Shown: one piece after another, positions 3,741-63,594 of the stretch
How the letters are laid out: every line of letters starts with the position of its first letter
How positions within the stretch are numbered: position 1 is the stretch's first letter
DNA from: Fomitopsis serialis
Lineage: Eukaryota > Basidiomycota > Agaricomycetes > Polyporales > Fomitopsidaceae
Length of the DNA: 64,000 nucleotides
Direction: 5' to 3'
Assembly: GCF_022376445.1 (NCBI RefSeq)
Contig: NW_025955173.1
Location: forward strand, 1 to 64,000
The notes under the pieces: model-generated
What the model was told of the DNA's origin: nothing
The model's database searches: none
The model's input: only the letters and a program-made list of their open reading frames with translations
Translations under genes and position numbers: made by a program

Positions 3741-3749
3741 TAGATGGCT

Positions 3750-27331: not shown

Positions 27332-27986
27332 TGTCTCGGGCCGAGGGTACAGCCAAAACTCGGCCAAAGCAGCCAGACATTTTGCCGGCCGAGCTTTTGC
27401 TTCACCGACTGGGCAAGCATTGTCTCGGGCCGAAAAATTGACCATTTTCTCGGGCCGAAGATTTGAGTACTGCCTCGGGCCGAAGAGTTGGGCATTTTCT
27501 CGGGCCGAAGATTTGGCCGAAGCTCGGTGAAAACAGCCGGGCTGTTGGATTGCCATATAAGGAAATTTGGTATTGACTGGTAGTACTTCATTGATAGACT
27601 ATAGTATCAATTCCCTAGTGACCAAAGATGTCTAGTTAGGCCAGGATGTGCAAAACAAGATTTACTCACAGGCTTCTTTGCACAGCAAGTTAATCAATTT
27701 CTGAAGCCAGTTTTCTTTTCCCACACTGTTTGACTATCTAGGATGTGTTGTTTCAATGCATAGAGTATATCCCCAACAGGAATAGTCTTATTCTTTGAAG
27801 CTGAATGCAGAACATGAGATAAGGGGCATACAGGTATGGTACCGTGCTGAACAATGTTGACTCCTGCAGCCAATGTACATTCAAAACAATGTTTCACCAT
27901 CTAGAATAGTTCATTTCCTCACAAGGAATCTGTTCTCCAAAGGAATAGTCTTATTCACACAAGCTGAATGTGGTACAGAGTTAAGG
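27332..27986 (+). repeat. Left arm of 655 bp inverted repeat
   Basis: Base i pairs with base 56313 minus i over the whole arm. Contains short frames that reappear identically on the other strand of the partner arm, so they are repeat artefacts rather than genes. Confidence 0.85.
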
Positions 27987-28326: not shown

Positions 28327-28981
28327 CCTTAACTCTGTACCACATTCAGCTTGTGTGAATAAGACTATTCCTTTGGAGAACAGATTCCTTGTGAGGAAAT
28401 GAACTATTCTAGATGGTGAAACATTGTTTTGAATGTACATTGGCTGCAGGAGTCAACATTGTTCAGCACGGTACCATACCTGTATGCCCCTTATCTCATG
28501 TTCTGCATTCAGCTTCAAAGAATAAGACTATTCCTGTTGGGGATATACTCTATGCATTGAAACAACACATCCTAGATAGTCAAACAGTGTGGGAAAAGAA
28601 AACTGGCTTCAGAAATTGATTAACTTGCTGTGCAAAGAAGCCTGTGAGTAAATCTTGTTTTGCACATCCTGGCCTAACTAGACATCTTTGGTCACTAGGG
28701 AATTGATACTATAGTCTATCAATGAAGTACTACCAGTCAATACCAAATTTCCTTATATGGCAATCCAACAGCCCGGCTGTTTTCACCGAGCTTCGGCCAA
28801 ATCTTCGGCCCGAGAAAATGCCCAACTCTTCGGCCCGAGGCAGTACTCAAATCTTCGGCCCGAGAAAATGGTCAATTTTTCGGCCCGAGACAATGCTTGC
28901 CCAGTCGGTGAAGCAAAAGCTCGGCCGGCAAAATGTCTGGCTGCTTTGGCCAAGTTTTGGCTGTACCCTCGGCCCGAGACA
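28327..28981 (-). repeat. Right arm of 655 bp inverted repeat
   Basis: Reverse complement of 27332-27986. Transcription through both arms would give a long double-stranded RNA stem. Confidence 0.85.
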
Positions 28982-29723
28982 ATCTGAAAATCTTCGGCCC
29001 GAGACAATCTGAACAATCTCGGCCCGGGACAATCCATGCCCGGTCGGCAAAGCAAAGGCTCGGCCGGCAAAATGGCTGGCTGCTTTGGCCGAGTTTTGGC
29101 TGTACCCCCGGCCCGAGACATTGTATTTTCGGCCGGCAAAAGGTGAAAAATTCCGGCCGGCCGGACCATTGACACTGACATTTCTACTGGCAGGCCGGAC
29201 CATTTGCATTGCTGGGAATTGATTCCATGTGCTCCGGCCGGACCGTTGCAATGTGTACATTGCTCTGGCAGGAACTCCGGCCGGGCCGTTGCTAATGGCA
29301 CCATGTTTATTGTATTTATTGACCGGCCGGAGCGTTTGCAATGTAAACTGCCCGGCCACTCCGTTTAGCTCAGAAATCTGCCTGCTCCGGCCGGACTGTT
29401 GGAAAGAGGATGACCGGCCCACATACCCTCCGGCCGGACCATTGCAACGTCTCGGGAAGGTTCCAGGGGAGGCCGGCCGCAACGCTGGAGATGGTGGATG
29501 ACCAGCCGGCCATGCCCTCCGGCCGGAGCGTTGCAATGGCACCGTTGCAAACGTTCCGGCCGGACCCTGGGGCTGCTCCGGCCGGCCTCCGGGTCAACGT
29601 TCCAAACGGGCAAATCTCACTCCGGGTCTACCGTTCCGAACGGGTTAGACACACTAAATAATGTGTATGTTCCTGATATATACTCCATTAGCTGTCGTTA
29701 ACAATGATTCAGCGTCCACTCAC

Positions 29724-30936
29724 GAGCAGGGCTTCGGAAAGCGTCCGTTTCTTCACCTTCCTGTATGAAATCTTCGAGATGTCAACACCGTACCGGCGAC
29801 AGGCTTCCCACAGTACTGCCTTAGCGAAGCTTTCCAACGCTTTCGAGGTGCAGGACTTGGTGAGTTTGCCATCCAACTTGGCCAGCGCTTTCTCCGTTGA
29901 CGCGTCGACATCAGGTTCCGCCACGGCACCGTCACCGTCCTCCTCGTCAACGGGAACATCCATGCCTAAGATGACGCGGAAGTGGTGCTGTACGACACGA
30001 AGGAAGAGAGTGTGCATGCCGTCGATAACCACAAGCTTCGTAGGATCCCAATATGACAGTCGCCAGAGTTCTGACCAGCGGACTCCGTGCTTCTTGTAGA
30101 GCTTCTTCTGCGTCGTCTTATTAGGTGCGTCACGCCAAGCTATCGCGTGCTCAAGCAGCTCCTCCCTAGTCTTCATCGTCCAGGTCTCGGGGTTCACGTT
30201 ATTGATATCTTCTTTCGTGAGTTTGCACAAAGCGCAGAAGCAGTGCGCCGCATGTGACGCTTGTCCGGAGACCTTCCGGCTAGCAGGGAGGTCGTTCACG
30301 CCTGTAGCAACACCGGAATGGACTCTGCGGCCCCTCGGATGTTGATATGTACGTGAGTACCACACGCCCCGACTCCACGCCGTGTCCAAAGTGTTGACGA
30401 GGGGGCGCAGGAAGTGGTTCATCTGGTCGTTTGAGGGTTCCGGGTGAGGCATGATGCCGTTCACGTACACGAAAGTTGGCTTGATGCGCAGACTCGGAGG
30501 TAAGAGCAAGCAGATCATCGCGATGGAGCCAGACGAGACTGATTTTCCTGAGATTTTGTTGAGATATGGGTTGAACCAGTCCACGGAGAGTGACCACAGC
30601 AGCAAGAGATCGTCGTCACCAGCAGTAGGTGTCTCTGCCTTCCACCGATCGCACATCTCTCTGACACCTTTCGCCTGTGATATGTCGCACAGCGCTCCCG
30701 TCCTGACCATAGCGAGGCTGCTACGGATCGCGTCCTCGACGCCTGGTTGGCTGAGCATCCGCCCGACGAAGCTATCGAAGTCTTGGACTGGGAACGGGCG
30801 AATGGGGACGCGTATACTTTCGCCGTTCCTCACTCCGCTCTTCGTGAGGCGAGCATTGCATGGTTCGCTGGTCGGCCACGGGCGATAGCTGCAGCGGCGT
30901 GGATAGATAGGTAGTTTAGGAGTGCCGGGGGCGTAT
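29724..30936 (-). pseudogene. Tnp2-type transposase, central catalytic part
   Basis: The frame runs from the LTR insertion point (APGTPKLPIYPRR) through VPIRPFPVQDFDSFVGRML, LLLLWSLSVDWFNPY, GVNDLPASRKVSG, HCFCALCKLTKEDI and WDPTKLVVIDGMHTLFLRVV. The last follows the H-x-x-L pattern of Tnp2/EnSpm transposases, where acidic residues near D-x-F-NPY and the D-x-M-H motif belong to the catalytic core. C-x-x-C in CFCALCK fits a metal-binding insert. It ends at a GTGAGT donor at 29723. The frame is uninterrupted. TSD and reading frame show that residues PTY at the end of the N-terminal part were directly joined to APG before the LTR element arrived. Confidence 0.8.
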
Positions 30937-31139
30937 TGTAACGGATATTCCCGTTACGGTATATCTTATCTTGCATGTTTGTTCTTGTTTGCTCGAGGGC
31001 TCGTATGGCGCACCAGCGCACTTACGAGACCTCAGTCCTTTACCATCCTCATCGCCCCATGTATGCTACGTGTAGACAGTCCCTCTGAATAGAGACTGGG
31101 TACAGCGCATACCGGGCCCGAGGATTAAGGGACGCTACA
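30937..31139 (+). repeat. 5' LTR (203 bp)
   Basis: TG...CA ends. Begins with a hairpin, GTAACGG (30938-30944) against CCGTTAC (30951-30957). A second stem, CTCGTA ... TACGAG, lies in the middle. By eye it matches the 3' LTR throughout. Confidence 0.9.
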
Positions 31140-31370
31140 CTTTTTTGCGCTCCAGAACAGCTTCTGTTCTGGGGACTATCTACTCTAGGCAACAACCTGG
31201 AAACATTGAATTTCTATGCTTTACATCAAAATCTAGTCGACTTCGCAACCACTCAAGAAGATGGCTGGATCGACAACCCACTCTCCCAAGCACTCGCGTA
31301 GTACTCGGGAGGCCCGCCGCGCGAAGGTCGATGCGAAGGTCGATGGACTTCTTGGCAGTTTTGCGAAGTT

Positions 31371-33011
31371 TTGAAGAGTAACCTGGCTGAGACACGAGCC
31401 ACCCCCGATACTAGGCGGTTCCGGACACTCGATGACTCGATGAAGCATCTAGAGGATGCTATCGCATCGCTCAGACGCTCCGTGGAGCAGGACAACGAGT
31501 CCAGACGTCACCGTCGAACGACCCGCCGGACTGAGTCCTCCGACCGCGAGGACTCAACCGGAGCACTCGCAGAGCAGGCGTCGTCCGACCGCGAGGTCGA
31601 ACACACAGCACGCGCAGAACCGCTGCGGGCCAAGGTCGAGCTCATTCAGAGCTGCCAGGAGAACACGACTCCGCCTGCTCCAGCCGAGCCGCAGGAGCTG
31701 GAAAGCTCCCCGACGAGTGGTGCACGCACCGAGATCGACAGCGCTGCCGCTGCCGAGCCCGTGTCTGAGTCCAAGGGACCACCAATTGAGCAGATCGAGC
31801 CCGACGTCGAGCCTGCTCAGAGCTGCCCGGAGACCCCGTCTCCGCCTGCTCCCAGTGAGCCGACGAAGCTCGGCACCACACTCAAGAGTGGTGCACGCGC
31901 CAGGTTCGTCGACGCCGCCGTCGCCGAGCCCGAGTCCCAGTTGTCCGACAAGATGACTCGGTCCTGCGCCCGGGAAGGCATAGGGACGCGACCCCACGTC
32001 GCATCCCCGGATGTAGACGAGCTTCTGCTCGTAGATCCACATATCGCGTGCTCAGAAATGAGCCGCGACTCAAAATATACAATTATCGCGCCGGACGACG
32101 TGCCCGACGCGGCCAGCATCGAGCTCGACGCTCAATGCGTCGAGCGTCATGCGCACGCGCCGAGAGCGAGCACTCCCAGCGGTAGCGCCGGAAGTACTCC
32201 TCTCAATGCTAACCGCCACTTCGACCTCCACACTGGCAGCCACCGCCCGCGTGCAACCGCGTTCCAACCCGGTTCGCACTTCCCAACGGAAGTGCGAGCC
32301 GCGGACTGTCCTTGGACAGCTGAACCCTTCGCGGTTCAGCTAAAGGACCGACCGGTCAGTATCGACTGCCATCTCGCGGTCGACACCCCCTTTGGTGACG
32401 ACTACTCGCGCGCGGCCGCTACCCAGGAAGACTTGCACTTCCTACCGGAAGTGCAAGACTTCGGACTCTCCAAGACGGTTGAACCGCACTCGGTATCGTT
32501 GGCACGCCTCGACCGGTCCCCAGAACAGGTCGACTGCGCTCAACCTCAGGATAGGCACGAGCGTCCGTCTGGCGGGCCAGACGCACACGCTGTTCCAATG
32601 GACGTACAAACTTGCGTTCGCGGATCCGGATGGCCAGCTGAACTACTGACAGTTCAACTGGCGGCGCCCAATGATCTGGCACCTCACGGTGCCAGACCGC
32701 GATCTACTTCCTATATGACCACGATCCTCGACTCTCGGAACCTCGCTTCGGACTCGAGAAGCTCTGTCCTCGACCCCGGCACCATCTGTTCGACCCTCGA
32801 AGGTTCTGGCGACACGCAACAGAGCCGCGCGGCCCAGGACTCGCACGACGCGCGTGCAAGTCCAGCGCCGAGCAACAAGGTCGAGAAGAACGTGCAGAAC
32901 GGGGAGCGAACAGGAACCAGGGAGATGAGGAAGAGAGAGGAGGGGAAGGGTGTGGGGCGAGCAAGAAGAACGAGCACAGAGGCTCAATGGACGCAGGTAC
33001 GCCCGTGTTGA
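31371..33011 (+). CDS. Long repetitive open frame 1 in the LTR element (coding status uncertain)
   Basis: 546 codons, rich in Pro, Glu, Asp, Ser and Ala. The N-terminal 50 residues could form a coiled coil (DSMKHLEDAIASLRRSVEQD). Later comes a degenerate repeat of about 50-55 residues with the pattern (L/S)HF-(L/P)-TEV ... (T/V)(A/E)EP-x-(A/S)VQL. The conserved codons of the repeat are exactly the DNA hairpins (for example TTCC/GGAA and AACC/GGTT arms), so base pairing rather than protein could be what is selected. It ends with a basic/acidic low-complexity tail encoded by a purine tract. No homology to Gag is visible. Confidence 0.35.
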   Translation: MKSNLAETRATPDTRRFRTLDDSMKHLEDAIASLRRSVEQDNESRRHRRTTRRTESSDREDSTGALAEQASSDREVEHTARAEPLRAKVELIQSCQENTTPPAPAEPQELESSPTSGARTEIDSAAAAEPVSESKGPPIEQIEPDVEPAQSCPETPSPPAPSEPTKLGTTLKSGARARFVDAAVAEPESQLSDKMTRSCAREGIGTRPHVASPDVDELLLVDPHIACSEMSRDSKYTIIAPDDVPDAASIELDAQCVERHAHAPRASTPSGSAGSTPLNANRHFDLHTGSHRPRATAFQPGSHFPTEVRAADCPWTAEPFAVQLKDRPVSIDCHLAVDTPFGDDYSRAAATQEDLHFLPEVQDFGLSKTVEPHSVSLARLDRSPEQVDCAQPQDRHERPSGGPDAHAVPMDVQTCVRGSGWPAELLTVQLAAPNDLAPHGARPRSTSYMTTILDSRNLASDSRSSVLDPGTICSTLEGSGDTQQSRAAQDSHDARASPAPSNKVEKNVQNGERTGTREMRKREEGKGVGRARRTSTEAQWTQVRPC

Positions 33012-33463
33012 GCGTATCCCACTCGCCACCGCCTCCTTCTCCAATGCCCACACCGGCACACGTATCGACGACCACAGAGGTCGTCGTGCGTGTCGCAGGC
33101 CATGGAGACGGCATGTACGCGTTGCGGGACGACCTAATGGTCGTGCCCATCGCCCCGGTTGTGCTACGGGACGACCTTATGGTCGTACCACCAACGTCGC
33201 AAAGCGACACAGTGGACGTTCAGTCCCGCATATCGGACACGTCCCGACCTTTGCTGACCGACCAGCACACTGTACCGACCAGTGAAGGTACGTCCTCGAT
33301 GGACGTACCTGTCTCGATACCTCCATCCCCAATGCCCGCGCCAGCAGGCGTATCGACGAACGAGAAGTCCGTCGTACGCACTGCTGGCCACGAAGATGGC
33401 ATGTATGTGTTGCGGGACGACCTAAGGGTCGTACCCCCGCCCCTCGAGGCGGTATGCCTGTAA
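32987..33463 (+). CDS. Repetitive open frame 2 in the LTR element (uncertain)
   Basis: 158 codons carrying the module-B protein repeat VVVR-x-AGH-x-DGMY-x-LRDDL-x-VVP three times. It overlaps the end of frame 1 and is continued by frame 3 in a different phase. CAG/GTACGC at its start is a possible splice donor that could connect frames. Confidence 0.3.
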   Translation: MDAGTPVLSVSHSPPPPSPMPTPAHVSTTTEVVVRVAGHGDGMYALRDDLMVVPIAPVVLRDDLMVVPPTSQSDTVDVQSRISDTSRPLLTDQHTVPTSEGTSSMDVPVSIPPSPMPAPAGVSTNEKSVVRTAGHEDGMYVLRDDLRVVPPPLEAVCL

Positions 33464-36207
33464 CACGGGACGACCTCGCGGTCGTACCGTCTATTCCGCT
33501 AGGCGGCACGGCGGACGCGCAGCATTGCACGTCCGAAGTGCCCCATCGAGCATTCACCAGCCGTCGCGTAGCGAACTCGAAGCTCGATGGTATGTCCATA
33601 CTGGACGTACCCAGTCCTTCCCCGGTTCTCTCGCTAGTACCCGAGCCAGTGTGCATGTCGACGAACGAGAAGGCTGTCGTGCGCACTACTGGTCACGGAA
33701 ACGGCAGGTACACGTTGCGGGACAACCTCGCGGTCGTTCCGTCCACTTCGCAAGACGACACGGCGGATGCACGGTGCTGCGTGCCCGCCTTGTCCCGACC
33801 TGTCATGACCGACCCACACGCAGGATCGATCAGTGAAGAGGTCGTTGTGCGTGCCGCAGGCCATGAAGACGGCACTTTCGTGTTGCGGGACGACCTGATG
33901 GTCGTACCCTTCGTTTCGCAAGGTAGCACACTGGCACTACGGGACGACCTCACGGTCGTACCGTCTATGCTACAAGGTGACACGGCGGACACGCCACAAT
34001 ACATGTCCGACGTGCCCCGTACAGCCTCCACCCGCCATCGGGTAGCAGACTCAGACCGTGACCTCGAAGATACGTCCATGCTGGACGTATTCAACTCTCC
34101 GCATATGCTATCGTCAGTACCCTCGCGAACGGGCGTAGCGATGAACAACAACCTCGTCGTGCGCACTGTAGGCCACGACAATGGCATGTATGACCTAAGG
34201 GTCATACCCGCCACTTCTCGAGGCAGTACACTTGCGATACGGGACGACCTCGCGGTCGTACCATCCAATCTGCAAGGCGACACGGCGGACGCGCAGTGCT
34301 GCACGTCCGACGTTTCCCAGACAGCTTTCATTAGCTGTCGAGTAGCGGGTTCGAAACTTGAAGGTACGCCCATACTGGACGTACCCAATGCCCCACCAGT
34401 TATATTGCCATCGCCTGAGCCAGCGTGCGTATCGACGAACACGGAGATTGTCGTGCGCACCGCTGGCCACGAACACAATACAATCATGCCCCAGAACGAC
34501 CTTGAGGTCGTACCCGAGCGTTCGAGTTCCTCGCTACCGTCTCCACTCCCATTACGGTACGACCTCGCGGTCGTACTCTTCAATTGGCAAAGCGAGACGA
34601 CGACCGAGCGCCATCCCACAATCTACGTACCCTGCTCGGTCACGAACGACAGTCGCGACGTAGAGGGTACGTCGAATTCATGGCTCGATATACACGCTAC
34701 CGGCAAGCACTGGCACAGAGGGTCGAGAAGTACAAGTACGCTCTCGGCGGACGTACTTACCTCGACGCCTGCTGCACCCATGCTCGTGTCCGTGCCCACG
34801 CTAGCGAGCGTCACGGTGAACGAAGAACCTGTCGCGCGCAACACCCACGGCTCGTCGGGCCACCGTCTCTTCATCTCCGCCTTCATGATCACTTGTGATC
34901 ATGGAGATGACATTACGCTCACATCTCGGGACGACCTTCAGGCCGTACCGGGACCCGTCATTCGCCACGGCGAAGTCGGGTACGCACAGTGCTCTCAGCA
35001 GCCCGAGATCGCCGTCGGGTCTGCTCAATGCCACCTGGAGGCACCATCCCAAGGTGCCCCGGCCCAAGCGATGAAGCCAGGCATCACCCCGAAGGATGAT
35101 GCACGCGCCGAGCTCGACACGTCCGTCATCGAGCTCGCATCCGAGCTGAACGAGTGGTGCGTTGAGTCGACGCATCTCCGCACTCGGGAGGGCATAGGCA
35201 CACAGTACCATAATAGTACTGTGTACAGCGGGGACGAACCCGTACGTGTAGATACACCCGTCGCGCGCTCAGAGATGAGCCGCGACACAAAAAATGTATT
35301 ATTATTATCGGACGACGTGCCTGCCACGACGAGCAGCCTGCTCGACGCGACGCGCGACGCGCTCAACGCTACAGGCGTTGGGTGTCACGAGCCCGTGGCG
35401 AGCGACCCGAGCGCTAGCGCCCACCGCACTACACTCGACCGCCACCACCGAACCCTCGTTCTTGACCTCTTCCACTCTCTGGGCAGCCACCTCGAGCGCC
35501 CGTCTGGCGAGCCAGACGCGCGCGCCGCCACGCGAGTGCGAACTCGCGTTCGCAACTGGCTGGTTGACTTAATGCCAGCCCAGTCAGTGGCAGCCGACGA
35601 CCTGGTACCTCGCGGTACCAAATCGCCACTTCCTCCCTCCCCGGCTCCTCACCTCACCACTTTCGGTTCGCGCATTCACTCTGGCGACCGCTACCGCGGC
35701 TTTGGCGACATGCTACCCAGCAGCGCGACTCAGGACTTGAACACCGCGCGTTCAAGCCCAGCGCCGAGCTGCAAGGCCGAGCGGACCACGAGGAACGCGG
35801 ATAGTGGAGGCTGCAAGGAGATCCCGAAGGAACAAGAAGGGTGCGAGGAACGGACGAAGGGTCAGGGGAGGAAGGGTGCGGGGCGAGTAGAGAAAGCGAG
35901 CAGGAAGGCTCGCAAAATACAGGTACGCCCTTACTGGACGTACTCAACTCGCCTCCGCCTGTGTCAGTGCCCGCGCCAGCGTGCGTGTCGACGAACATGG
36001 AGTTCGTCGTGCGCACTACGGACCATGAAGATGGCACCTCCGCCCCCAGGGACGACTGCGAAGTCGTACCCAATGTCCCGCACGGCAGTGCATCCGTGCT
36101 GCGGGACGACCTCGCGGTCGTCCCACTCATCTCGCAATACGACATGGCGGACGTGCAGTACTGCACGTCCGACGTGCCTCACCATCCCACGACCGGATGT
36201 CGAGTAG
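33454..36207 (+). CDS. Repetitive open frame 3 in the LTR element (uncertain)
   Basis: 917 codons. The first 400 residues are module B: about six to eight variants of the unit (L)RDDL-x-VVPS ... GDTADAQ-x-C-TSDV. Then comes module A2 (DDVPATTSSLLDA, then HLERPSGEPDA) and a purine-encoded charged tail. RDDL-x-VVP is the translation of the hairpin ACGACC-NNNN-GGTCGT. No known domain. Confidence 0.3.
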   Translation: MPVTRDDLAVVPSIPLGGTADAQHCTSEVPHRAFTSRRVANSKLDGMSILDVPSPSPVLSLVPEPVCMSTNEKAVVRTTGHGNGRYTLRDNLAVVPSTSQDDTADARCCVPALSRPVMTDPHAGSISEEVVVRAAGHEDGTFVLRDDLMVVPFVSQGSTLALRDDLTVVPSMLQGDTADTPQYMSDVPRTASTRHRVADSDRDLEDTSMLDVFNSPHMLSSVPSRTGVAMNNNLVVRTVGHDNGMYDLRVIPATSRGSTLAIRDDLAVVPSNLQGDTADAQCCTSDVSQTAFISCRVAGSKLEGTPILDVPNAPPVILPSPEPACVSTNTEIVVRTAGHEHNTIMPQNDLEVVPERSSSSLPSPLPLRYDLAVVLFNWQSETTTERHPTIYVPCSVTNDSRDVEGTSNSWLDIHATGKHWHRGSRSTSTLSADVLTSTPAAPMLVSVPTLASVTVNEEPVARNTHGSSGHRLFISAFMITCDHGDDITLTSRDDLQAVPGPVIRHGEVGYAQCSQQPEIAVGSAQCHLEAPSQGAPAQAMKPGITPKDDARAELDTSVIELASELNEWCVESTHLRTREGIGTQYHNSTVYSGDEPVRVDTPVARSEMSRDTKNVLLLSDDVPATTSSLLDATRDALNATGVGCHEPVASDPSASAHRTTLDRHHRTLVLDLFHSLGSHLERPSGEPDARAATRVRTRVRNWLVDLMPAQSVAADDLVPRGTKSPLPPSPAPHLTTFGSRIHSGDRYRGFGDMLPSSATQDLNTARSSPAPSCKAERTTRNADSGGCKEIPKEQEGCEERTKGQGRKGAGRVEKASRKARKIQVRPYWTYSTRLRLCQCPRQRACRRTWSSSCALRTMKMAPPPPGTTAKSYPMSRTAVHPCCGTTSRSSHSSRNTTWRTCSTARPTCLTIPRPDVE

Positions 36208-38210
36208 CGGGTACGCCCCAGATGGACGTACCCACCTCGACACTTCATCCCTTGCCCGCGCCCATACCAACAAGCGTAGCGACGAACGTGAAGTTCGTCG
36301 TACGCATGGCTGGCCAAGAGGACGGCATGTTCACGCTGCCGGACGACCTATTGGTCGTGCTTTCCGATACGCAAGGCCGCGCGCCAGTATTAGAGGACGA
36401 CCGCGAGGTCGTACATTTCAATGCGCAAGGCGGCACGATGGATCAGCAGCGATGCAGGTCCGAGATGCCCCATCCAGCGTCGACCGTCCGTTGTGCAGCG
36501 CGTACGTCTAGCCTGCCGCTAGACGTACACGGGGCTTATGACCACCCCTCGTCGATTGCCCCTGACTTCTTGTCTGGCAGCTATATCGCTCGTCCACCCG
36601 CAACGCAACACGGCCTGCACGTCCTCACGGAAGTGCAGGGCCCTGACTGGCCCAGTGCAGCTGAACCTCCTTTGGTTCAGCTGGCAGAGTCGTGGGTTCA
36701 CCTCGACGACAGATCCAGCAGCCCCCAATCGCGCGCGGCCGCATTCCGGGAAGAATTGTACTCCCAACCGGAAGTGCGAGCCCCCGGTAGCGTCAAGACA
36801 GCTGAACACCTCGCTGTTCAACTGACAGGCCCGCAATACGACCTTGACCTGCTCGACGAAGTGTTGGACCTCAATCCCGACTTGTTGAGCAGTCACCACC
36901 GTCTTCGCGACCCCGGCGCCTCTGCGAGTGCGCAGCCCGACGCTTGCGTAGCCCCAACGAACACGCGAGTTCGGGATTGCGAGGCGACTACTGCACTACC
37001 GACAGTGCAGCAGCCGGCGCTTACGGACTCCGACCGACCAGAACGGCTGTCCGACCGTCAACCCGACGAGAACTTCACAGTTCTCATCGAGGGTTCGATC
37101 CTAGGGACCCCTACCAAACTCCCCATCACCTCCTTCGCGGCCCCCGACATCGGTGGCGACTACGAGAGGCGTCACGAGTCGGAGCTCGTGCACGCACCCC
37201 GAAGATCGAGTGCAGGACGGACGGAGGATCAGGGCGGGGTCGAGGTGGAGGTGGAGGAGATTGCAGAGGCAGGAGAGGCAGAGGAGGAAGGTCAGACAGA
37301 AGGAAGAGAGGGGGAAGGGCACGGCGTAGGCAAGGAAGACAAGCTTCCGTGCTCGGAAGACAAAAGTACGCCCGTACTGGACGTACCTCCCCCGCTTATA
37401 TCGCCACCCCTTACACCGTCATCACCACTATCGACGGCCACGACAACCACACTGGTTGTCGTGGCAATCACCGTGCACAATGGTGGTACGGGCAGACCAC
37501 GGGGCGACCTACAGGTTGCTCCCGGCACGGCTAGGCATTGCGGTACGATCGGCGAGCGAGTCTGCTCGTCCGATGTATCCGACATCTTCACAGCTCACGC
37601 GCAGACGACGAGTTCCTCGCTCGACATCTACGCTGAGGTGCTTAGCAGTGGATCAAACAACGAGTGCCTCAAGGTACTCGCTGCGCATTCACCACCTCCT
37701 ATCCCACTACCACCACCTGTGACGATCACGACAATCAACGTGGTTGTCGTGGCAGTCACCACGTATGACGGTGGTACCAATGGCCTATGGAATGTATTAC
37801 GAGCTGCACCCGGCATGACGATGCATCGCGGTACAATCGGTGAGCTTACTTGCTCGACCGATGTGCCTGATCGTTCTGCAGCCCACGTGCAGACGTTGGG
37901 CTTCCCCGTCGACGTCCACGATGAGGAAGTTGACGGTGATTCGAGAAGCGAGTACCTCGTGGTACTCGTGCCAGTATCATTACCCTGCATTCCGATACCA
38001 CCACCGATTGGTCACATCCAGTATGGTCGCGCATCGGACTCAGGGAGTGCTGAGCTCGCTGGCGAATGCGAGTACATTACAGCTCGGGTTGCGACCACCC
38101 TCACTGGTCCCATCACCATCATCCATGATGTATCTGGAGAACTTCACAGTTCTCCGACCTGGGTTGCTATCATCATTCCGGGCTGCATAACTCCATTGAG
38201 TTATGTATGA
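35841..38210 (+). CDS. Repetitive open frame 4 in the LTR element (uncertain)
   Basis: 789 codons covering module B2 (VVRTTDHEDGTSAPRDD), module A3 (LHVLTEVQGPDWPSAAEPP) and module B3 (STATTTTLVVVAITVHN). Between A3 and B3 lies a Glu/Gly/Arg-rich stretch from purine tract 3. It overlaps frame 3 in another phase. The frame changes at every A-to-B boundary, so a single uninterrupted protein is not encoded. Confidence 0.3.
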   Translation: MRGTDEGSGEEGCGASRESEQEGSQNTGTPLLDVLNSPPPVSVPAPACVSTNMEFVVRTTDHEDGTSAPRDDCEVVPNVPHGSASVLRDDLAVVPLISQYDMADVQYCTSDVPHHPTTGCRVAGTPQMDVPTSTLHPLPAPIPTSVATNVKFVVRMAGQEDGMFTLPDDLLVVLSDTQGRAPVLEDDREVVHFNAQGGTMDQQRCRSEMPHPASTVRCAARTSSLPLDVHGAYDHPSSIAPDFLSGSYIARPPATQHGLHVLTEVQGPDWPSAAEPPLVQLAESWVHLDDRSSSPQSRAAAFREELYSQPEVRAPGSVKTAEHLAVQLTGPQYDLDLLDEVLDLNPDLLSSHHRLRDPGASASAQPDACVAPTNTRVRDCEATTALPTVQQPALTDSDRPERLSDRQPDENFTVLIEGSILGTPTKLPITSFAAPDIGGDYERRHESELVHAPRRSSAGRTEDQGGVEVEVEEIAEAGEAEEEGQTEGREGEGHGVGKEDKLPCSEDKSTPVLDVPPPLISPPLTPSSPLSTATTTTLVVVAITVHNGGTGRPRGDLQVAPGTARHCGTIGERVCSSDVSDIFTAHAQTTSSSLDIYAEVLSSGSNNECLKVLAAHSPPPIPLPPPVTITTINVVVVAVTTYDGGTNGLWNVLRAAPGMTMHRGTIGELTCSTDVPDRSAAHVQTLGFPVDVHDEEVDGDSRSEYLVVLVPVSLPCIPIPPPIGHIQYGRASDSGSAELAGECEYITARVATTLTGPITIIHDVSGELHSSPTWVAIIIPGCITPLSYV

Positions 38211-38397
38211 CGAGAGTGGACGGCCATGCTGCTCACTGACACGAAGTAGCTTGTCGTTGTCTACAGTATGACACCACCTCGGTCTGGCCTATTGCTACCA
38301 CCGTTGTGTGGTAGCATGTACTTTCCTTTTCATTTCCTCTTTCTTTTTGTTTCTCTGGTTATTGCTGGGACCCGTGGTCGTGTCCAGTGGGGGAGGG

Positions 38398-38600
38398 TGT
38401 AACGGATATTCCCGTTACGGTATATCTTATCTTGCATGTTTGTTCTTGTTTGCTCGAGGGCTCGTATGGCGCACCAGCGCACTTACGAGACCTCAGTCCT
38501 TTACCATCCTCATCGCCCCATGTATGCTACGTGTAGACAGTCCCTCTGAATAGAGACTGGGTACAGCGCATACCGGGCCCGAGGATTAAGGGACGCTACA
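38398..38600 (+). repeat. 3' LTR (203 bp)
   Basis: Same sequence as 30937-31139, preceded by a polypurine tract and followed by the CGTAT duplication. The matching LTRs suggest a recent insertion. Confidence 0.9.
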
Positions 38601-38605
38601 CGTAT

Positions 38606-39785
38606 GTAGGCTCGTAAGTCATGGAGCAGACGGGGCATGCTGCCCAGTCGGTAACGATGGGATCCAGGTCGAACAGCCGTCGCACTGTGCGGATGTCGGT
38701 AGGAAACTCTCTAAGGACCTTCTGATCCATGGGACTAGGTGGTCCATTCAGTCCGATGGCCATCTCGCTGAACATTTTGAGAACGTGAAGCGTGAAGTTG
38801 CACATTTGGCGCGTGACGCCTCCGAGAAGTTGCAGAACGAGGGCGAGGAAGATCGCGACTACCACAAGTGGGTTCGATTGCTTCAACGGATGTTCATACA
38901 ACACCGCTTTACGTCGCGTCAGTACGCTGGGCAGCATTCAGATTGTCCAGAGCACTCACTCGTATCAACTACACGGACAGGACCTTCTGTGCTCGTAGGG
39001 GTCGGAATCAGGGACACCTCCCGGAGCATTGCTGCCACGGTCGCGATCTGCGTTTCCAGCCGTTCGGTCATGCCCTCGCGCTGGAGTACGACTTTTGGGT
39101 CAGAACTTCCCTGTGCCAGGAAGTGCACGGTACGTTGCGCCTCCATGAACCAATGCAATTCGTCATCTAACGCCTTCACAGCGTCGGTCGCGGCAGCGCT
39201 CTTCATAGGGGCCTGTAGGCCCTTCGAGAACGCCTCGTCGCAGAGCCTGATGTGATCGTCGAGTTCGTAGTCTAGGAGCGCCAGTTCGGGCCAGGGCTCT
39301 ACTGGCGGTGTGTGCAGCGGCTCAGGATTGGGGATGGGAGGAGGGTTATTGCGTATGGTGCTCGTGGAGCGGGTTGCTGAATCGCCGGTGAGTAATTGTG
39401 CCAGCGCGTTAGAGAGCTGAAAACATACTCAACGGCGAGTCGTCCACGCCTCGTCCCCACATTGTGTTGTGCTGGGTGTTACCCGTCTCAAGCCCGTCAT
39501 CCGTCAACGTCATATACGTCAATTCGTCAAGCATGGCGTCGAATTTGGCCTCGGCGATCTTTGGGATGGTGTGAGCACGATCTCTTGCCTTATCGGATGG
39601 GCTATACTCACTGCACGCTCTTCTTCTTTGCGCTTCTCCTCAATCAACTGGTCTGTGCGACGTTTCTCCTCTCGACGTACTTCTTCTCGACGCTTTTCTT
39701 CTGTCTGGTGATGCCGATATTCGTTATACGCGAGGGGAGAACCCTTGCATGTAGAACAGTTGCACATCACTGTTTGGGGCGCCAT
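38606..39785 (-). pseudogene. Tnp2-type transposase, N-terminal part
   Basis: The ATG at 39785 starts MAPQTVMCNCSTCKG, a Cys pair usual at the N-terminus of fungal Tnp2-like proteins, followed by a strongly charged helix (RREEVRREEKRRTDQLIEEK). Exon 1 ends at 39612 (GTGAGT). Exon 2 has IAEAKFDAMLDELTYMTLTD. The next holds PWPELALLDYELDDHIRLCD. After a further intron comes NPLVVVAIFLALVLQLLGGV, then LREFPTDIRTVRRLFDLDP and WAACPVCSMTYEPTY. The exon joins I tested keep phase. At 38606 the frame is cut by the LTR element and resumes exactly at 30936. The gene would have cut and pasted a CACTA-like transposon; it is now disrupted unless the LTR element is removed. Confidence 0.8.
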
Positions 39786-46794: not shown

Positions 46795-47295
46795 TGTTGA
46801 ACTTCCGACTTTCCAGTGTTATCTTATCTTATCAGTTACGTACATATATGGACTTGTGTTCTGCGATGTAGTATTACATACATTCTTTTGATGGACTCTG
46901 TCTGGACTCATCTTGTGACTCGCTCCAGACCGATCTACACTGTTCCAGACTTATTCTGGATCATTCCACTCCCTTCCGGCATGTTCCATGACCTTCCAGT
47001 ACATTCCTTGATCACATGGACGCTTATGCATATCCCTATCTCTGGAGTTAAGGCTTACTCATTTCCCTAAAACTCGGACTTAGTGATTACTGATCTGCTT
47101 ACTGATGTAGCATGTGATCAGTCCCAGACATGTATATATACTGGGGTGATTCCCCCCTAATGGATAACGATCTCTCCTCTCTTCTGCCTGCCTAGCATCA
47201 GAGTCTTCCCTCTGGGATAGGTCTGTTCACTCCACTCTACTGTCCTTCACTTCCACTGGCCTAACAAGCCCTTCTAAACCTCTTTCACTTCAACA
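46795..47295 (+). repeat. Copia 5' LTR (501 bp)
   Basis: TG...CA ends; same length as the 3' LTR at a fixed offset of 6092. The 84-codon shadow frame inside is identical in both LTRs. Confidence 0.95.
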
Positions 47296-47319
47296 GGTTA
47301 TGAGCCCCGCGCTCTGATC
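47296..47319 (+). other. Copia primer-binding site, half-tRNA-iMet type
   Basis: GGTTATGAGCCCCGCGCTC begins at the first base after the LTR. Its complement reads GCGGGGCTCATAACC, which matches the anticodon arm of initiator tRNA-Met (CAU anticodon inside CTCATAACC). This is how copia-type elements prime, using the 5' half of the tRNA cut in the anticodon loop, rather than the 3' CCA end. Confidence 0.7.
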
Positions 47320-47424
47320 GTTTATATCACCTGTACCTTTTGCGCAACCAAAGCCCAACTCTTGAAAGAGTGAGTTGGCATATTTTGTCCTTATTTGGAC
47401 TACTGTTTAGCCGCTCTGTGACAA

Positions 47425-48231
47425 GTGCCCAAAGCCTTGTCCAAGCGCATTTCCAGGGTAGCTCGCAAGAGCAATTACGAAGTTTTTCCACCGTCTCGTC
47501 GTGAGAGATACGACGTAGGCGACGCCGACACTAGCGCTGTTGCTGAGCGTCATCAGCGTTTATACGGTCATCTACCCATTGATCGCCAGATCGATATCAT
47601 CCTCACTCCTACCCCGCGCCCTCGCCGTCCCACCTATCGTCGCCCTGACACCTCTCGTCCCCCGAAGGCGTCCTGTCGCAAGACCCTTGAGCAGCAGCTT
47701 GAGGAGCTCCAGTTGAAGGCAGACGACTCTAGGGCACTCCTTGAAGCTCGACGTGCGGAGTACGCTGCTACGCTTGCCGCTGAAACCACCGCCAAAGAAG
47801 CTGCCAAGGCTTCCCTTATCGCACGCATCGAAGGCGTACCTCTTCCCCTTCCTATCACAGCCCTTAAGCCGTTTGACGCCGACTTCAAGAAAAAGTCTCA
47901 GACGGAGAAGGCCGCCATCCTCACGAAGCGTCTCTTCGCCGTTCAGAAGTGCCTTCACCCTCTCTTCACCCACAAGCTGCGCGACACTGTTCGCTGGTCG
48001 CTCACCGACAACCTCAACGCTTTTGGACGTCGGTTCAATTGGGTCTGTTCTCACTTTGAGACAGAGGGTCATTCGTGGTCGCACGACGCGCTCAACGACG
48101 TCAAGCTTGTCTGCGAGCTGATTGGGAAGATCTCCTTCAAGGAGCTTAGCAAGAACCTTTCTAAGGTTACTAGGGAAGTTGGGGACTTGCACAAGGGCAA
48201 TCACTTGGCTTGGGTAGACAAGTATTTGTAG
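47425..48231 (+). CDS. Extra open frame between LTR and gag of the Copia element
   Basis: 268 codons, opening at a GTG and containing no Met codon at all. Basic N-terminus (LSKRISRVARKS), then a coiled-coil-like helix (LEQQLEELQLKADDSRALLE and on), then an Ala-rich part and a C-terminal Trp/Phe-containing domain (FGRRFNWVCSHFETEGHSW). It ends in TAG at 48229. The gag-pol frame continues in the same phase after 57 nt, with a second stop (TGA 48274) between. An acceptor-like TATTTTTCAG lies at 48264-48273 and another, CGCATTTCCAG, near 47448. It may be a spliced or readthrough N-terminal extension of Gag, or a separate accessory protein. No recognised family. Confidence 0.5.
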   Translation: MPKALSKRISRVARKSNYEVFPPSRRERYDVGDADTSAVAERHQRLYGHLPIDRQIDIILTPTPRPRRPTYRRPDTSRPPKASCRKTLEQQLEELQLKADDSRALLEARRAEYAATLAAETTAKEAAKASLIARIEGVPLPLPITALKPFDADFKKKSQTEKAAILTKRLFAVQKCLHPLFTHKLRDTVRWSLTDNLNAFGRRFNWVCSHFETEGHSWSHDALNDVKLVCELIGKISFKELSKNLSKVTREVGDLHKGNHLAWVDKYL

Positions 48232-48717
48232 TCGCGTCACAAATTTTATCTTTGTTCCTGGAATATTTTTCAGTGAAGCATCACAACTGTGGCAACGTCT
48301 CAAGAGGAGACATTTGCAGAGACTCAGGTCTCTTCAGGCGAAGAGTCAGACGACTCATACGATTGTTCAAACCACTACCATCTATACGACTACGAGGAGG
48401 TTTGCGACGCTCATTATAGAGACGACGATCAAACCTGGTGGAACTGTGACAACACTCATTGTCCAAACCGTTACCACACACCATCTGGTGATTTTCCTCG
48501 AGGCTTCAAAGCTGGTATCGCTGTCGAAGCTTGGCAAGACAATTTCCTATTCGCCAACGAATTTTCGGAGTCACCTCCAAAACCTGAACATTTAATCTCG
48601 CTCCCTGAGTCGAGATCTCAAACACCTGAACCGGAGGAATTACCCTTCGAGTTATTTACACCAGAACCTCCTTCTTCGCCCGACACACAAGGCGAATTTA
48701 TCCTCTTATCCGCAACC

Positions 48718-51700
48718 ATGGGTGACGTCAAGCCAGACAATATCCCTAAGCTCTCTTCAGCGTCCCAATACGCTGACTGGTCTGCCGCTATGCGCGGTTA
48801 TTTAATATTCATAGAGGCCTGGCCCGCTGTTATTGCAACAGTAACTACCGACACAGAGTACAAGAAACAGAATGCCCGTGCTCAGGGTGTTCTATTTATG
48901 CGGACTGATCGCTCGATGCATCATTTGCTCGAGGGATCTAGTGGTGAACTCAAGACCGCTAAGGAAATGTGGGCGGCCCTTAAGACAGCCTTTGGTACAC
49001 CCGACACGGCATTCGTCTGGAGTCTCTTCCAGTCGGTGATCAAGTCTCCGGAGATGTCTGATTCCAAACCTCTGCAGGATCAGATCAACAAGCTGGTTAC
49101 TCGGCTTAAGGAGATTACGGCTGGTGGCATAACTCTCGGTGAATCGACCCAGGCTCTTCTCCTTCTGTCGAAGGTGCCTGAATCCTATCAATCGATGATC
49201 TCTGCGCTCATGGCGACGCAGAACATCAAGGATCTCAAGGTCGACTCTGTTCAGTCGAAGATTCTTGCCGAAGAATCTCTCCGCCGGTCTGGTATGGGAC
49301 AATCTGCGTCCAAGACATCCCAGGTCAAGCACAAGTCATCGGGTCCCTGTGGTCACTGCGGTGGAAATCACGGCAGTGAGAATTGTTGGACAAAGTACCC
49401 GCATTTGCGCCCCCAAAATAAGGGTGGCGGCAAGGGGAAAAAGGACAACAAGGGCAAAGGCAAAGGGAAGAATAAGGGCAAGGGCAATGGTAACGGACAA
49501 TCTGGTTCTGGTTCCTCCAACGCTGCTACTACTTCAGACTCCACAAATGTTGTAACTGTAGAATCCTCCGTGTCGTCTTCAGCTAATACTATGACTGCTT
49601 CCTGGTATACTGCGGGTCACTCTGCTTCTGGAAGAATGACTGACTGGATTATGGATTCTGGTGCGTCGAAGACAATCACCAACGACATGGCTGATTTTTG
49701 GGACTATACTCCTTACGAGGAACCCATGATTTTTGGTACAGCCGGCAAGTCTAAGATTGCAGCTTATGGAGAAGGGACCATCAAAGGTGTTGTGCACGTT
49801 GAAGGGAAACATGTTAAAGCAACTATTACAAATGTTGCTTACATCCCTGCCGCATCTGGTCGCCTGTTTTCTACTGGTGTTATTGAGCAATCAGGTTTTA
49901 CCCTAGTTCAGGGAGGAGGTCGTATGGTCATCTATGACCAACCTATTTCGCAAGGTCGAGTCTGTGGTAACATGATCATGGAGGCACACCATAAGCCCTT
50001 CAATAATCTCTATATGTTGTACCTAGACATTTTGACACCGCAATCGGCAAAGTCTACAGACAAGTCGAATTTTCGTCTCTGGCATGAACGCTTCGGACAT
50101 TCGTCTGAAGATGTTATTCGTCAGATTCCCAAGCACACTAAGGGTGTGGATTCCATTGGTGCCAAGGATACTTCTTCTCCTTGTGCAGGGTGTCAGTGGG
50201 GCAAGTCTCATCGCGCTCCATTTCCCCCATCGGCTAAACGTGCTACAAAGCCCCTTGAGCTCATTCATACTGATGAGGACGGTCCTATGCGTACCACTGC
50301 AATAGGTGGATGGCGTTATTTCATCAGCTTTCTCGACGACTATACTGGTCTTGGTCGTGCCTATTATCTCAAGCACAAGAACGATTCGATCCAAGCGTTC
50401 GATGACTTCAAGGCATGGGCTGAGAACCAAACAGATGAAAAAATCAAGGCTGTACGCTCGGATCGTGGGGGGGAATATACGTCTGCTGCTTTTACCGAAC
50501 ATTTGCGCAAATTTGGTATTGAACATCAGTTCACAATGCCGTACTCTCCTCAACAGAATGGGAGAGCTGAGCGCTGGAATCGGACCATTGTTGAGAAGGC
50601 TATGTCTATGCTGCACCATGCTGGACTAAGCCATGGTTTTTGGCAATTGGCTGTGGACACTGCGGTTCATATTTATAATCGGCAACCTATGCGACGCCTT
50701 AACTGGCAATGCCCCATTACTCTCTGGAATGGCACAATTCCGGATATTTCATACTTTAGGATTTTTGGGTGCAAGGCATTTGTGCATGTGCAGAAAGAAC
50801 AGAGATCTGGGAAGCTCGACAAGAAGGCTGTTGAGATGATCTTTGTAGGCTATGAAGTTGGTTCCAAAGGGTATCGTTTCTGGAACCCGGCTACTCGAAG
50901 TATTGTTGTGTCTCGTGATGTGACCTTCGATGAAGAGACATTTCCTGCACGAAAGGACTTAGGCAATAATCCGAAATCCCTGGATGAGCCGTTTGATGAA
51001 CCTCCTGAGGATGCCAACTCAGAGGATCTAGATTTTGAGGATATTCCTATCCCTGTTCCTGTCCCGCCGGAACATGAACCTGAAGAACATCAGGAGCCAG
51101 TGGGAGATAATCCGCAACAGCAACCTGATCCAGTAGCTCCTCCGCAACCTCAGTATGAGCGTCCTCGCCGTCAAGGTGCTGGACAGAACCCTCAGAGGAA
51201 TAGAGACAATGCCTATGGTGACGAGCCACCAGCAAGTATTGACCGTCGTACTGATAGTCAAGGCCGTCAACAACCTGAGGCTGAAACTGCTCAATTTATA
51301 CGGATGCTGGCGGAAGCGAACCATGGTCTTCCCCAAAGTCATAAGGAAGCCATGGAATCTCACGACCATGATAAATGGCTTGCTGCTGAAGGTTCTGAGT
51401 ACAAGTCACTCATGGACAATAAGACTTGGGTTCTAGTTCCACGGCCTAAAAACCGGAAGGTTGTCAAGTGCCGTTGGGTTTATGCGATTAAGCACGATGG
51501 TCGCTATAAAGCACGTGTTGTCGCAAAGGGATTTACCCAAGTATGGGGTCAAGATTATACTGAGACTTTCTCTCCGGTTGCACGGTTTGAATCTGTACGC
51601 TACTTGTTGGCACATGCAGCCCTTGAAGATTGGGAGATAGAGTCTATGGATGTCAAGACGGCATTCCTTAACGGTGACCTTGACGAGGAAATCTACATGG

Positions 51701-52875: not shown

Positions 52876-52877
52876 AC

Positions 52878-52886
52878 AAGTGGGAG
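52878..52886 (+). other. Copia polypurine tract
   Basis: AAGTGGGAG directly precedes the TGTT of the 3' LTR. It is the site where plus-strand DNA synthesis is primed. Confidence 0.85.
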
Positions 52887-53387
52887 TGTTGAACTTCCGA
52901 CTTTCCAGTGTTATCTTATCTTATCAGTTACGTACATATATGGACTTGTGTTCTGCGATGTAGTATTACATACATTCTTTTGATGGACTCTGTCTGGACT
53001 CATCTTGTGACTCGCTCCAGACCGATCTACACTGTTCCAGACTTATTCTGGATCATTCCACTCCCTTCCGGCATGTTCCATGACCTTCCAGTACATTCCT
53101 TGATCACATGGACGCTTATGCATATCCCTATCTCTGGAGTTAAGGCTTACTCATTTCCCTAAAACTCGGACTTAGTGATTACTGATCTGCTTACTGATGT
53201 AGCATGTGATCAGTCCCAGACATGTATATATACTGGGGTGATTCCCCCCTAATGGATAACGATCTCTCCTCTCTTCTGCCTGCCTAGCATCAGAGTCTTC
53301 CCTCTGGGATAGGTCTGTTCACTCCACTCTACTGTCCTTCACTTCCACTGGCCTAACAAGCCCTTCTAAACCTCTTTCACTTCAACA
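52887..53387 (+). repeat. Copia 3' LTR (501 bp)
   Basis: Matches the 5' LTR and is followed by the AGACC target-site duplication, after which the Spt5-like frame resumes. Confidence 0.95.
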
Positions 53388-61894: not shown

Positions 61895-61905
61895 CAGCGT
61901 AGTGA

Positions 61906-63420: not shown

Positions 63421-63594
63421 ACTGAGGCTGCTGCGAGGCTCTCGACTTGTTCTCTTTCTTGGTCCCTGGTTCTCGCTGCGATTTGGCTTGGCGAGAGCCT
63501 GCTCTCCAAGTACGCAACTGCTGTTGAGAAATCGTCGTCAGAGATTGTTAGAGCGGTTTGGCAGAACGATGTTTCAAACTGGGGAATCGCTTCT

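What the first reader, a model, noticed from the sequence alone, without database searches (positions are those of the whole stretch)
31140..38320. LTR element whose interior is an array of covarying hairpins
More than 50 short inverted repeats (stems 6-11 bp, loops 2-6 nt) tile about 7 kb. Homologous hairpins in different modules change both arms together. ACGACC/GGTCGT at many sites becomes ACGACT/AGTCGT (36052), ATGACC/GGTCAT (34188) and GGGACGACC/GGTCGTCCC (36103). GGTACGTCC/GGACGTACC (33287) becomes ATACGTCC/GGACGTAT (34070) and GTACGTCTAGC/GCTAGACGTAC (36502). GGCACC/GGTGCC (32675) becomes GGTACC/GGTACC (35602), and CGACGACC/GGTCGTCG (33067) becomes CGACGAAC/GTTCGTCG (36248). Loops vary freely. 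This pattern is the signature of selection or a copying mechanism acting on pairing, in an element with no gag or pol. Possibilities: a structured RNA that hijacks the Gag/RT of an autonomous partner, a multivalent protein-binding RNA or DNA scaffold, a Dicer decoy or substrate, or hairpins made by template switching during reverse transcription. I know of no described LTR family with this design.
Basis: partly seen in the sequence, partly recalled or inferred. Interest (0 to 1): 0.88.

Follow-up and report, generated by a model that had tools for sequence, protein, structure and literature searches.

The report
Hairpin-studded non-autonomous LTR retrotransposon
A recently active jumping element in a wood-decay fungus shows no recognised gene for moving itself, yet it carries the remains of one giant reading frame peppered with hairpins whose two arms tend to change together, suggesting that the folded shape matters, perhaps for being carried by another element.

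Summary
Window 31140-38320 has 64 stems of 6 bp or more against 12.4 in dinucleotide shuffles; nine of ten quoted hairpins lie within 3 nt of the stated place. The element has identical 203-bp LTRs and a CGTAT duplication, lies in a genome taken to be Fomitopsis serialis, and its family has at least 43 PPT/3'-LTR junctions.

Synonymous shuffling removes most hairpins. In the best-sampled module, 87 Watson-Crick double changes compare with 38 (maximum 52) for permuted columns. One bulged hairpin is near-invariant.

Against a simple RNA reading: G-U is depleted as strongly as other mismatches, both strands fold equally, and arms evolve only about 25-35% more slowly, not clearly different from control. 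I favour selected cis-acting structure in a LARD-like element; arm-to-arm correction stays open. No helper was found.

The parts
30932..30936 (.). target-site duplication CGTAT, left
   Evidence: 30932-30936 = 38601-38605 = CGTAT
30937..31139 (+). 5' LTR, 203 bp, TGTAAC...CTACA
   Evidence: identical to the 3' LTR
31140..31153 (+). CTTTTTTGCGCTCC directly after the 5' LTR, in the place of a primer-binding site (role inferred from position)
   Evidence: 36 genomic matches, 1 in the reversed-pattern control
31152..31172 (+). first hairpin, 9-bp stem, 3-nt loop, in the leader
31261..38210 (+). remains of the giant ORF (ATG at 31261, read); in this copy open only in pieces: 31302-33011, 32675-33463, 33286-36207, 35805-38210 in successive frames
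   Evidence: four of 18 relatives (L017, L015, L018, L028) carry it in one frame of 2210, 2118, 1988, 2519 codons stop to stop
32043..32069 (+). bulged hairpin, copy 1: ATCGCG-T-GCTCA-GAAA-TGAGC-CGCGAC (outermost pair broken here)
35260..35286 (+). bulged hairpin, copy 2: GTCGCG-C-GCTCA-GAGA-TGAGC-CGCGAC
33037..36333 (+). 7 copies of the 83-nt B1 module (33037, 33325, 33630, 34110, 34404, 35960, 36251), an imperfect stem-loop of up to 26 bp
   Evidence: (family D4)
33156..36447 (+). 9 copies of the GACGACC..GGTCGTA hairpin module (family D3)
   Evidence: (D3)
32979..37387 (+). 9 copies of the GGTACGTCC/GGACGTACC hairpin module (family D6)
38382..38397 (+). polypurine tract GTCCAGTGGGGGAGGG before the 3' LTR
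   Evidence: 43 genomic matches of PPT plus LTR start, 0 in control
38398..38600 (+). 3' LTR
38601..38605 (.). target-site duplication CGTAT, right

Best explanation
This is a recently inserted copy of a non-autonomous LTR retrotransposon family of Fomitopsis (Neoantrodia) serialis. Its interior does two things at once. It holds one very long, weakly constrained reading frame for a low-complexity protein, and it holds an array of stem-loops whose base pairing is kept by selection. SHOWN by sequence: LTRs, TSD, PPT; frame conservation; hairpin excess that synonymous shuffling removes; compensatory double changes; less decay than a neutral simulation in the three modules tested; a near-invariant bulged hairpin with a GAAA or GAGA loop, whose core is present once or twice in all 19 interiors examined. 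INFERRED: the structures act in cis on the element's RNA (or its cDNA) during mobilisation by a helper element's Gag and RT, as packaging, dimerisation or compaction signals. The bulged hairpin would be the specific signal and the array a multivalent scaffold. The ORF would keep the RNA translated and stable, or make a disordered protein that acts with it.
For: Element anatomy. No Pfam match in three ORF pieces of this copy or in two relatives' ORFs. None of the RVT_1 (147) or RVT_2 (104) matches listed lies inside the 30 PBS-PPT intervals, nor within 8 kb inward of the 6 PBS and 13 PPT matches left unpaired. Hairpins exceed dinucleotide shuffles and synonymous shuffles: 18 against 1.8 at 8 bp or more in L017; at that length all 8 ORFs tested exceed every one of 60 shuffles. 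Fold z per 120 nt: about -2.0 in this element and L017, -0.56/-0.33 in the Copia region, 0.07/-0.18 in window 1-7000. Module B1, 61 members: WC doubles 87 against 43.7 +- 5.6 (neutral placement) and 38.3 +- 5.0 (permuted columns); thinned to 31 rows, 46 against 19.9 +- 3.7. Mean MFE, members against neutral decay: B1 -27.2/-21.8, B2 -12.3/-8.3, B3 -7.8/-6.3. Between deep families, 60 of 141 hairpins lose at most one pair, against 4490 of 30584 random segments. Bulged hairpin: 68 genomic matches with up to 2 mismatches, 1 in control; stem identity 0.98, bulge 0.56, flanks 0.74/0.70 in 18 unique copies.
Against: G-U, A-C and other mismatches are depleted about equally in B1 (0.68, 0.70, 0.77 of neutral), and over 51 hairpin families A-C exceeds G-U (mean G-U share 0.37; 37 families below one half, 12 above). 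Selection on a plus-strand RNA should spare G-U. Both strands fold equally well. The large rate difference of arms is mostly ascertainment: in triples that avoid it, arm/background is 0.65 (0.36-0.97) or 0.75 (0.51-0.99), against 0.92 for random segments, so slower evolution of arms as a class is not firmly shown. Strong covariation rests on B1 and the pooled set; B2 and B3 have only 3 WC doubles each, with no other doubles. Between deep families only 9 of 141 hairpins are fully intact (0.064, control 0.039). In L024 the excess is seen only at 8 bp or more. The rows were picked by a core that fixes or restricts nine positions; 3 of the 68 matches read GAAG in the loop. No helper was found, and packaging is inferred by analogy with Ty1 (PMC5454406, abstract and introduction read).
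Confidence: 0.5

Rival explanations
1. Arm-to-arm correction: during reverse transcription or repair a strand folds back and one arm is rewritten from the other, so that pairing is kept by a copying bias without any function.
For: All mismatch types are depleted alike. Both strands fold equally. Loop lengths peak at 4-6 nt, as foldback needs, and GNRA-like loops are common on both strands (10 and 16 of 59). The arm rate in unbiased triples has an interval that includes the control. Homologues with four or more changes have them all in one arm in 6 of 25 cases against about 2.5 expected, though most of the six look like one hairpin family.
Against: With two or three changes there is no concentration in one arm: 39 of 94, about 40 expected. 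Perfecting changes fall equally on both arms, 18 and 17. At 90% identity or more, WC doubles are 4 against 79 single changes. 2 of 160 changed loops are inverted, 1.1 expected. In all 30 copies listed the bulged hairpin keeps an unpaired base at the same place while that base varies; such correction should erase it.
Confidence: 0.2
2. Decaying palindromes: the modules descend from long, nearly perfect inverted repeats spread by duplication and are now losing pairing, with no present function.
For: The B1 column consensus folds at -40 kcal/mol, its members at -27 on average. Most homologues of a perfect hairpin are imperfect (781 of 1106).
Against: Members keep more pairs and lower energy than neutral decay (B1: 17.97 against 15.43 +- 0.21 pairs; -27.2 against -21.8 +- 0.45). 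WC doubles are twice the neutral number.
Confidence: 0.12
3. Structure needed as DNA, or on both strands (hairpins in single-stranded cDNA, cruciforms, or transcripts of both strands).
For: No preference for plus-strand G-U; equal folding of both strands; GNRA-like loops on both strands.
Against: Perfect stems without a loop are rare (3 unique hairpins with stems of 8 bp or more, against 47 with a 4-nt loop), so double-stranded protein sites are unlikely. The best conserved hairpin has its GAAA/GAGA loop on the plus strand, and 15 of its 68 matches carry GTTCA, a plus-strand G-U pair. In module B2 G-U exceeds A-C, 16 to 9.
Confidence: 0.1
4. RNA-interference related: the imperfect stems of up to 26 bp are Dicer substrates or decoys.
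For: Stem-loops of 50-60 nt with paired arms of about 20-26 nt.
Against: Nothing specific; small-RNA data were not available here.
Confidence: 0.05
5. By-product of a repetitive protein whose motifs happen to be encoded by palindromic codons.
For: Hairpins coincide with repeated peptide motifs such as RDDLxVVP.
Against: Synonymous shuffling removes most hairpins; synonymous sites in arms are conserved too (pS 0.038 against 0.086, with the ascertainment caveat); paired changes alter amino acids in step (T..V to N..F, read); hairpin centres show no fixed codon phase in four ORFs.
Confidence: 0.03

Closest known systems
LARDs (large retrotransposon derivatives, e.g. Sukkula) of plants
   Different: LARDs are described there as encoding no protein; here a frame-conserved ORF fills the interior, and the structure is an array of short stem-loops within it. 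The host is a basidiomycete.
TRIMs (e.g. Cassandra)
   Same: Non-autonomous LTR elements with predicted conserved RNA structure.
   Different: TRIMs nearly lack an interior; here it is 5,974-8,153 bp in 16 elements with LTR pairs, 7,258 in this copy.
Ty1 helper/mini-Ty1 RNA packaging (TIPIRT domain) and retroviral psi
   Same: Stem-loops extending into the coding region; compensatory changes restore function; a defective RNA is mobilised in trans (PMC5454406, abstract and introduction).
   Different: There the signals lie in the first few hundred nucleotides; here hairpins run through the whole interior. No function has been tested here.
Genome-scale ordered RNA structure of persistent RNA viruses (recalled; only a search listing was seen)
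   Same: Structure spread through coding sequence.
   Different: Here discrete short hairpins in an LTR element, with no G-U preference in the pooled data.
Rickettsia palindromic elements in coding genes (recalled; the search found no paper)
   Same: Hairpin-forming sequence read as protein.
   Different: Those are inserted units in host genes; here the hairpins make up a retroelement interior.

Membership tests
LTR retrotransposon | terminal direct repeats TG..CA, target-site duplication, PPT | tested here: met
LTR retrotransposon | primer-binding site complementary to a tRNA 3' end | tested here: not met
   The interior starts CTTTTTTGCGCTCC, not TGG; no primer was identified, and internal tRNA fragments or self-priming were not tested
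Autonomous LTR retrotransposon | gag/RT/integrase | tested here: not met
   No Pfam match in the five ORFs or ORF pieces tested; no RVT_1 or RVT_2 match inside 30 PBS-PPT intervals
LARD | large internal domain, no recognised gag/pol | tested here: met
   interior 5,974-8,153 bp
LARD | no protein-coding capacity | tested here: not met
   ORFs of 1,988-2,519 codons in four relatives; 8983 in-frame against 291 out-of-frame codons at 80-90% identity among eight ORFs
LARD | conserved RNA secondary structure of the interior | tested here: met
   base pairing is shown, its being RNA is not
TRIM | miniature, almost no internal domain | tested here: not met
TR-GAG elements (recalled) | recognisable Gag domain | tested here: not met
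   the structure job did not finish, so a Gag fold is not excluded
Helper-mobilised parasite with shared packaging signal | autonomous partner with the same LTR, PBS or hairpin | tested here: inconclusive
   None found among the hits listed; the lists are lower bounds. The one lead, C305, is a fragment of about 470 bp beside a Copia ORF

The most novel reading that the evidence does not exclude
A non-autonomous LTR retrotransposon whose entire 7-kb interior is a dual-use sequence: a reading frame kept open with loose amino-acid constraint, serving mainly to carry an array of selected stem-loops. Their Watson-Crick complementarity is kept on both strands and acts as a multivalent signal by which the element parasitises a helper's particle, with one near-invariant bulged GNRA-type hairpin as the specific recognition site.
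Probability: 0.3. Interest if true: 0.8.

Novelty: new variant of a known kind. Interest (0 to 1): 0.62.

Why it matters
Which features let a helper element choose an RNA for its particle is poorly known (said of virus-like particles in PMC5454406, 2017, introduction). This family offers natural variants in one genome: at least 43 PPT/3'-LTR junctions, identical LTR pairs in 11 of the 16 other elements with both LTRs, interiors down to about 65% identical, 95 hairpin families of which 36 show a compensated pair, and one near-invariant hairpin. It also gives a case where conserved peptide motifs are at least partly shadows of nucleic-acid structure, and where selection on pairing and arm-to-arm correction can be told apart.

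Tried and rejected
Rejected or corrected. (1) My first reading, that arms evolve 2.5-3 times more slowly, was largely ascertainment, because the reference copy was chosen to be perfect; correct it (0.65-0.75, wide intervals). (2) Nearly equal codon-position rates suggested no protein constraint; Nei-Gojobori counts gave median dN/dS of 0.55-0.75, so constraint is weak, not absent. (3) Minus-strand function from A-C excess and GNRA loops: not separable from base composition. (4) Loop inversion and codon phase of hairpins: no signal; one-arm rewriting: none with two or three changes, a small excess with four or more. (5) Autonomous partner: C8:143449 is cut by the contig end; C305 is a fragment beside a Copia ORF without matching LTRs; the Copia of this window has other LTRs. 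(6) Rfam: best match E 0.24, far below its gathering score. (7) Other species: protein searches hit only Fomitopsis serialis, 3 proteins and 1; both scored only the 8,000 or so candidates sharing most words. (8) Structure prediction of the N-terminal region was started and not finished; nothing rests on it. (9) RNAalifold gave no structure for B1.

Counts and drops. Covariation used 19 interiors (window plus 18 fetched loci; L010 and L026 incomplete; L020 and L022 fetched but not used). HSPs under 120 columns or above E 1e-10 and hairpins with gaps were dropped, and comparisons within one element are included. Modules used rows with at most 15% gaps: B1 61 of 80, B2 55 of 77, B3 48 of 56 unique hits. 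One search is superseded. One search ended with an error after L030, so L031 was fetched and not analysed.
Full report
WHAT IT IS. The finding lies in an LTR retrotransposon at window 30937-38600. The two 203-bp LTRs are identical and are flanked by CGTAT on both sides. By eye it interrupts a reading frame with a Transposase_21 (tnp2) match, 29712-30953 on the minus strand. The window is part of contig C128 of a 66.2-Mb, 806-contig genome. The only protein relatives found are annotated in Fomitopsis serialis, and for three of the four the contig length (456024, 43940, 26343) equals that of C179, C260 and C444; the fourth was not checked. The host is therefore taken to be that species. The LTR search scored 40 matches (a lower bound); the PPT plus LTR-start pattern occurs 43 times with no control match; CTTTTTTGCGCTCC occurs 36 times with 1 control match. 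Of 16 other elements with both LTRs, 11 have identical pairs and the rest 97.8-99.5%, so the family moved recently.

IT IS CODING. Stop-to-stop ORFs of 569, 262, 973 and 801 codons follow each other in changing frames in this copy. In four of 18 relatives they are one frame: 2210 codons in L017, 2118 in L015, 1988 in L018, 2519 in L028; the others have it shorter or in pieces. Frames agree between copies (8983 in-frame and 291 out-of-frame codons at 80-90% identity, eight ORFs) with median dN/dS of 0.55 at 90-100% and 0.68-0.75 below. Of 235 gaps in alignments of at least 90% identity, 86 are of 1 nt, 16 of 2, 69 of 3 and 2 of 4; 115 are multiples of three. The protein is rich in S, T, P, A, V and D; three pieces of this copy and two relatives' ORFs match no Pfam family. 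Copies with a broken frame, this one included, also have identical LTRs, so the product may act in trans or be dispensable for the last move (inference).

THE HAIRPINS ARE REAL. They exceed dinucleotide shuffles five-fold at 6 bp and over thirty-fold at 8 bp. Shuffling synonymous codons, which keeps the protein and codon usage, lowers stems of 8 bp or more from 18, 20, 22, 11, 12, 4, 17 and 12 to means of 0.9-1.8 in the eight ORFs tested. L024 is the weakest: 4 against 0.87 (maximum 3), and within the shuffled range at 6 and 7 bp. Folding z-scores per 120-nt window average about -2 on either strand in this element and L017 and -2.4/-2.5 in L028, against -0.56/-0.33 for the Copia region and near zero for window 1-7000. 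Loop lengths of unique stems of 8 bp or more peak at 4 (47), 5 (31) and 6 (17); loop zero occurs 3 times. These are hairpins of a single strand rather than double-stranded palindromes. In some families they are the inner part of longer imperfect stem-loops of 50-60 nt.

COVARIATION. Pooled over homologous hairpins, 248 of 389 double changes keep Watson-Crick pairing, against 16-32% with slid partners. Of 95 hairpin families, 36 show at least one such double and 28 at least one non-pairing double. Clean cases include TCGCACTTCC..GGAAGTGCGA and TGGCACTTCC..GGAAGTGCCA (window and L019). In module B1 (61 members, 26 pairs) there are 87 WC doubles against 43.7 +- 5.6 for substitutions placed at random and 38.3 +- 5.0 (maximum 52 of 500) for permuted columns. 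After thinning to 31 rows it is 46 against 19.9 +- 3.7, and 17 of 26 pairs have at least one. Members keep 17.97 pairs against 15.43 +- 0.21 expected, and -27.2 against -21.8 kcal/mol. B2 and B3 also keep more pairs than expected (7.80 against 6.59, 6.58 against 4.37), but with only 3 WC doubles each. Pairing is thus kept better than neutral decay would allow, but loosely. Between the deepest families 60 of 141 hairpins lose at most one pair (control 4490 of 30584), but only 9 are fully intact, little above control.

ONE SPECIAL HAIRPIN. GTCGCG-N-GCTCA-GARA-TGAGC-CGCGAC occurs at 32043-32069 (first base A here) and 35260-35286. All 19 interiors hold its core once or twice. Genome-wide there are 68 matches with up to two mismatches, 41 exact, and 1 control match; 15 carry GTTCA instead of GCTCA, a plus-strand G-U pair, and 3 read GAAG in the loop. 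In 18 unique copies the stem is 0.98 identical, the bulge 0.56 (T 10, C 7, A 1, each changing the amino acid), the loop GAAA or GAGA, and the 30-nt flanks 0.74 and 0.70. The copies were picked by a short core, so nine positions are fixed or restricted by choice.

WHAT SPEAKS AGAINST A SIMPLE RNA STORY. In B1, G-U, A-C and other mismatches are reduced to 0.68, 0.70 and 0.77 of neutral; over 51 families A-C outnumbers G-U, though not in B2 (16 G-U, 9 A-C). An RNA-only constraint should tolerate G-U. Both strands fold equally, and GNRA-type tetraloops are frequent on either strand (10 and 16 of 59). The apparent slow evolution of arms is mostly ascertainment: in triples where the reference cannot bias the comparison, arms run at 0.65-0.75 of background with intervals up to 0.97-0.99, against 0.92 for random segments. 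Watson-Crick complementarity as such is therefore what is kept. That fits selection on both strands, or arm-to-arm correction. Correction lacks most of its own marks: no one-arm rewriting with two or three changes (39 of 94), though 6 of 25 with four or more, mostly one family; equal use of both arms; few doubles in close pairs (4 against 79 single changes); no excess of loop inversion; and an unpaired base that persists in all 30 listed copies of the special hairpin.

MECHANISM. Most likely the element is moved by proteins of another LTR element, and its structures act in cis on that route, for packaging, dimerisation or compaction, as shown experimentally for stem-loops of Ty1 RNA with a helper (PMC5454406, abstract and introduction read). 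That step is inference. No partner was found: none of the listed RVT_1 (147) or RVT_2 (104) matches lies inside the 30 PBS-PPT intervals or within 8 kb inward of the 19 unpaired PBS or PPT matches, and these lists are lower bounds.

COMPARED WITH THE KNOWN. LARDs and TRIMs are non-autonomous LTR groups said to specify well-conserved RNA structures (PMC7215508, passages). This family resembles LARDs in size and lack of gag and pol but fails the no-coding criterion. The listings of nine literature searches showed no such family; the held library is open-access and lacks most subscription journals. I rate it a new variant of a known kind.

Noticed in passing
window 29712-30953 (-) and 38606-38937 (-): The element sits inside a tnp2-like (Transposase_21, PF02992) reading frame; the part right of the insertion appears to continue the same protein (by eye).
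   Followed up: partly
window 46795-53186: Copia element with LTRs identical over at least 300 nt and a 1532-codon gag-pol ORF at 48277-52875; eight genomic places give the same RVT_2 score.
   Followed up: partly
window 59270-63537 (-): Two overlapping minus-strand ORFs with endonuclease (Exo_endo_phos_2) and RVT_1 plus RNase H: a LINE-type element, with a strong AT skew over 59-64 kb.
   Followed up: no
window 28797-29120 and 27416-27515: 25-bp repeats CCAAATCTTCGGCCCGAGA.. in opposite orientation at two places, perhaps subterminal repeats of a DNA transposon.
   Followed up: no
window 38367-38385 and the ends of L024 and L028: A further hairpin directly before the polypurine tract; in L024 and L028 GGACTCGT..ACGAGTCC, less perfect in the window (by eye).
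   Followed up: no
L010, G000:C257:285604-299522: A copy with LTRs 13.9 kb apart; the fetched part loses similarity after about 3 kb, so another element is probably nested in it.
   Followed up: no
L021, L023, L024, L028: More distant families with fewer short perfect stems (0.9-1.8 per kb at 8 bp or more); in L028 folding is nevertheless as strong (z -2.4 and -2.5), through longer imperfect stem-loops.
   Followed up: partly
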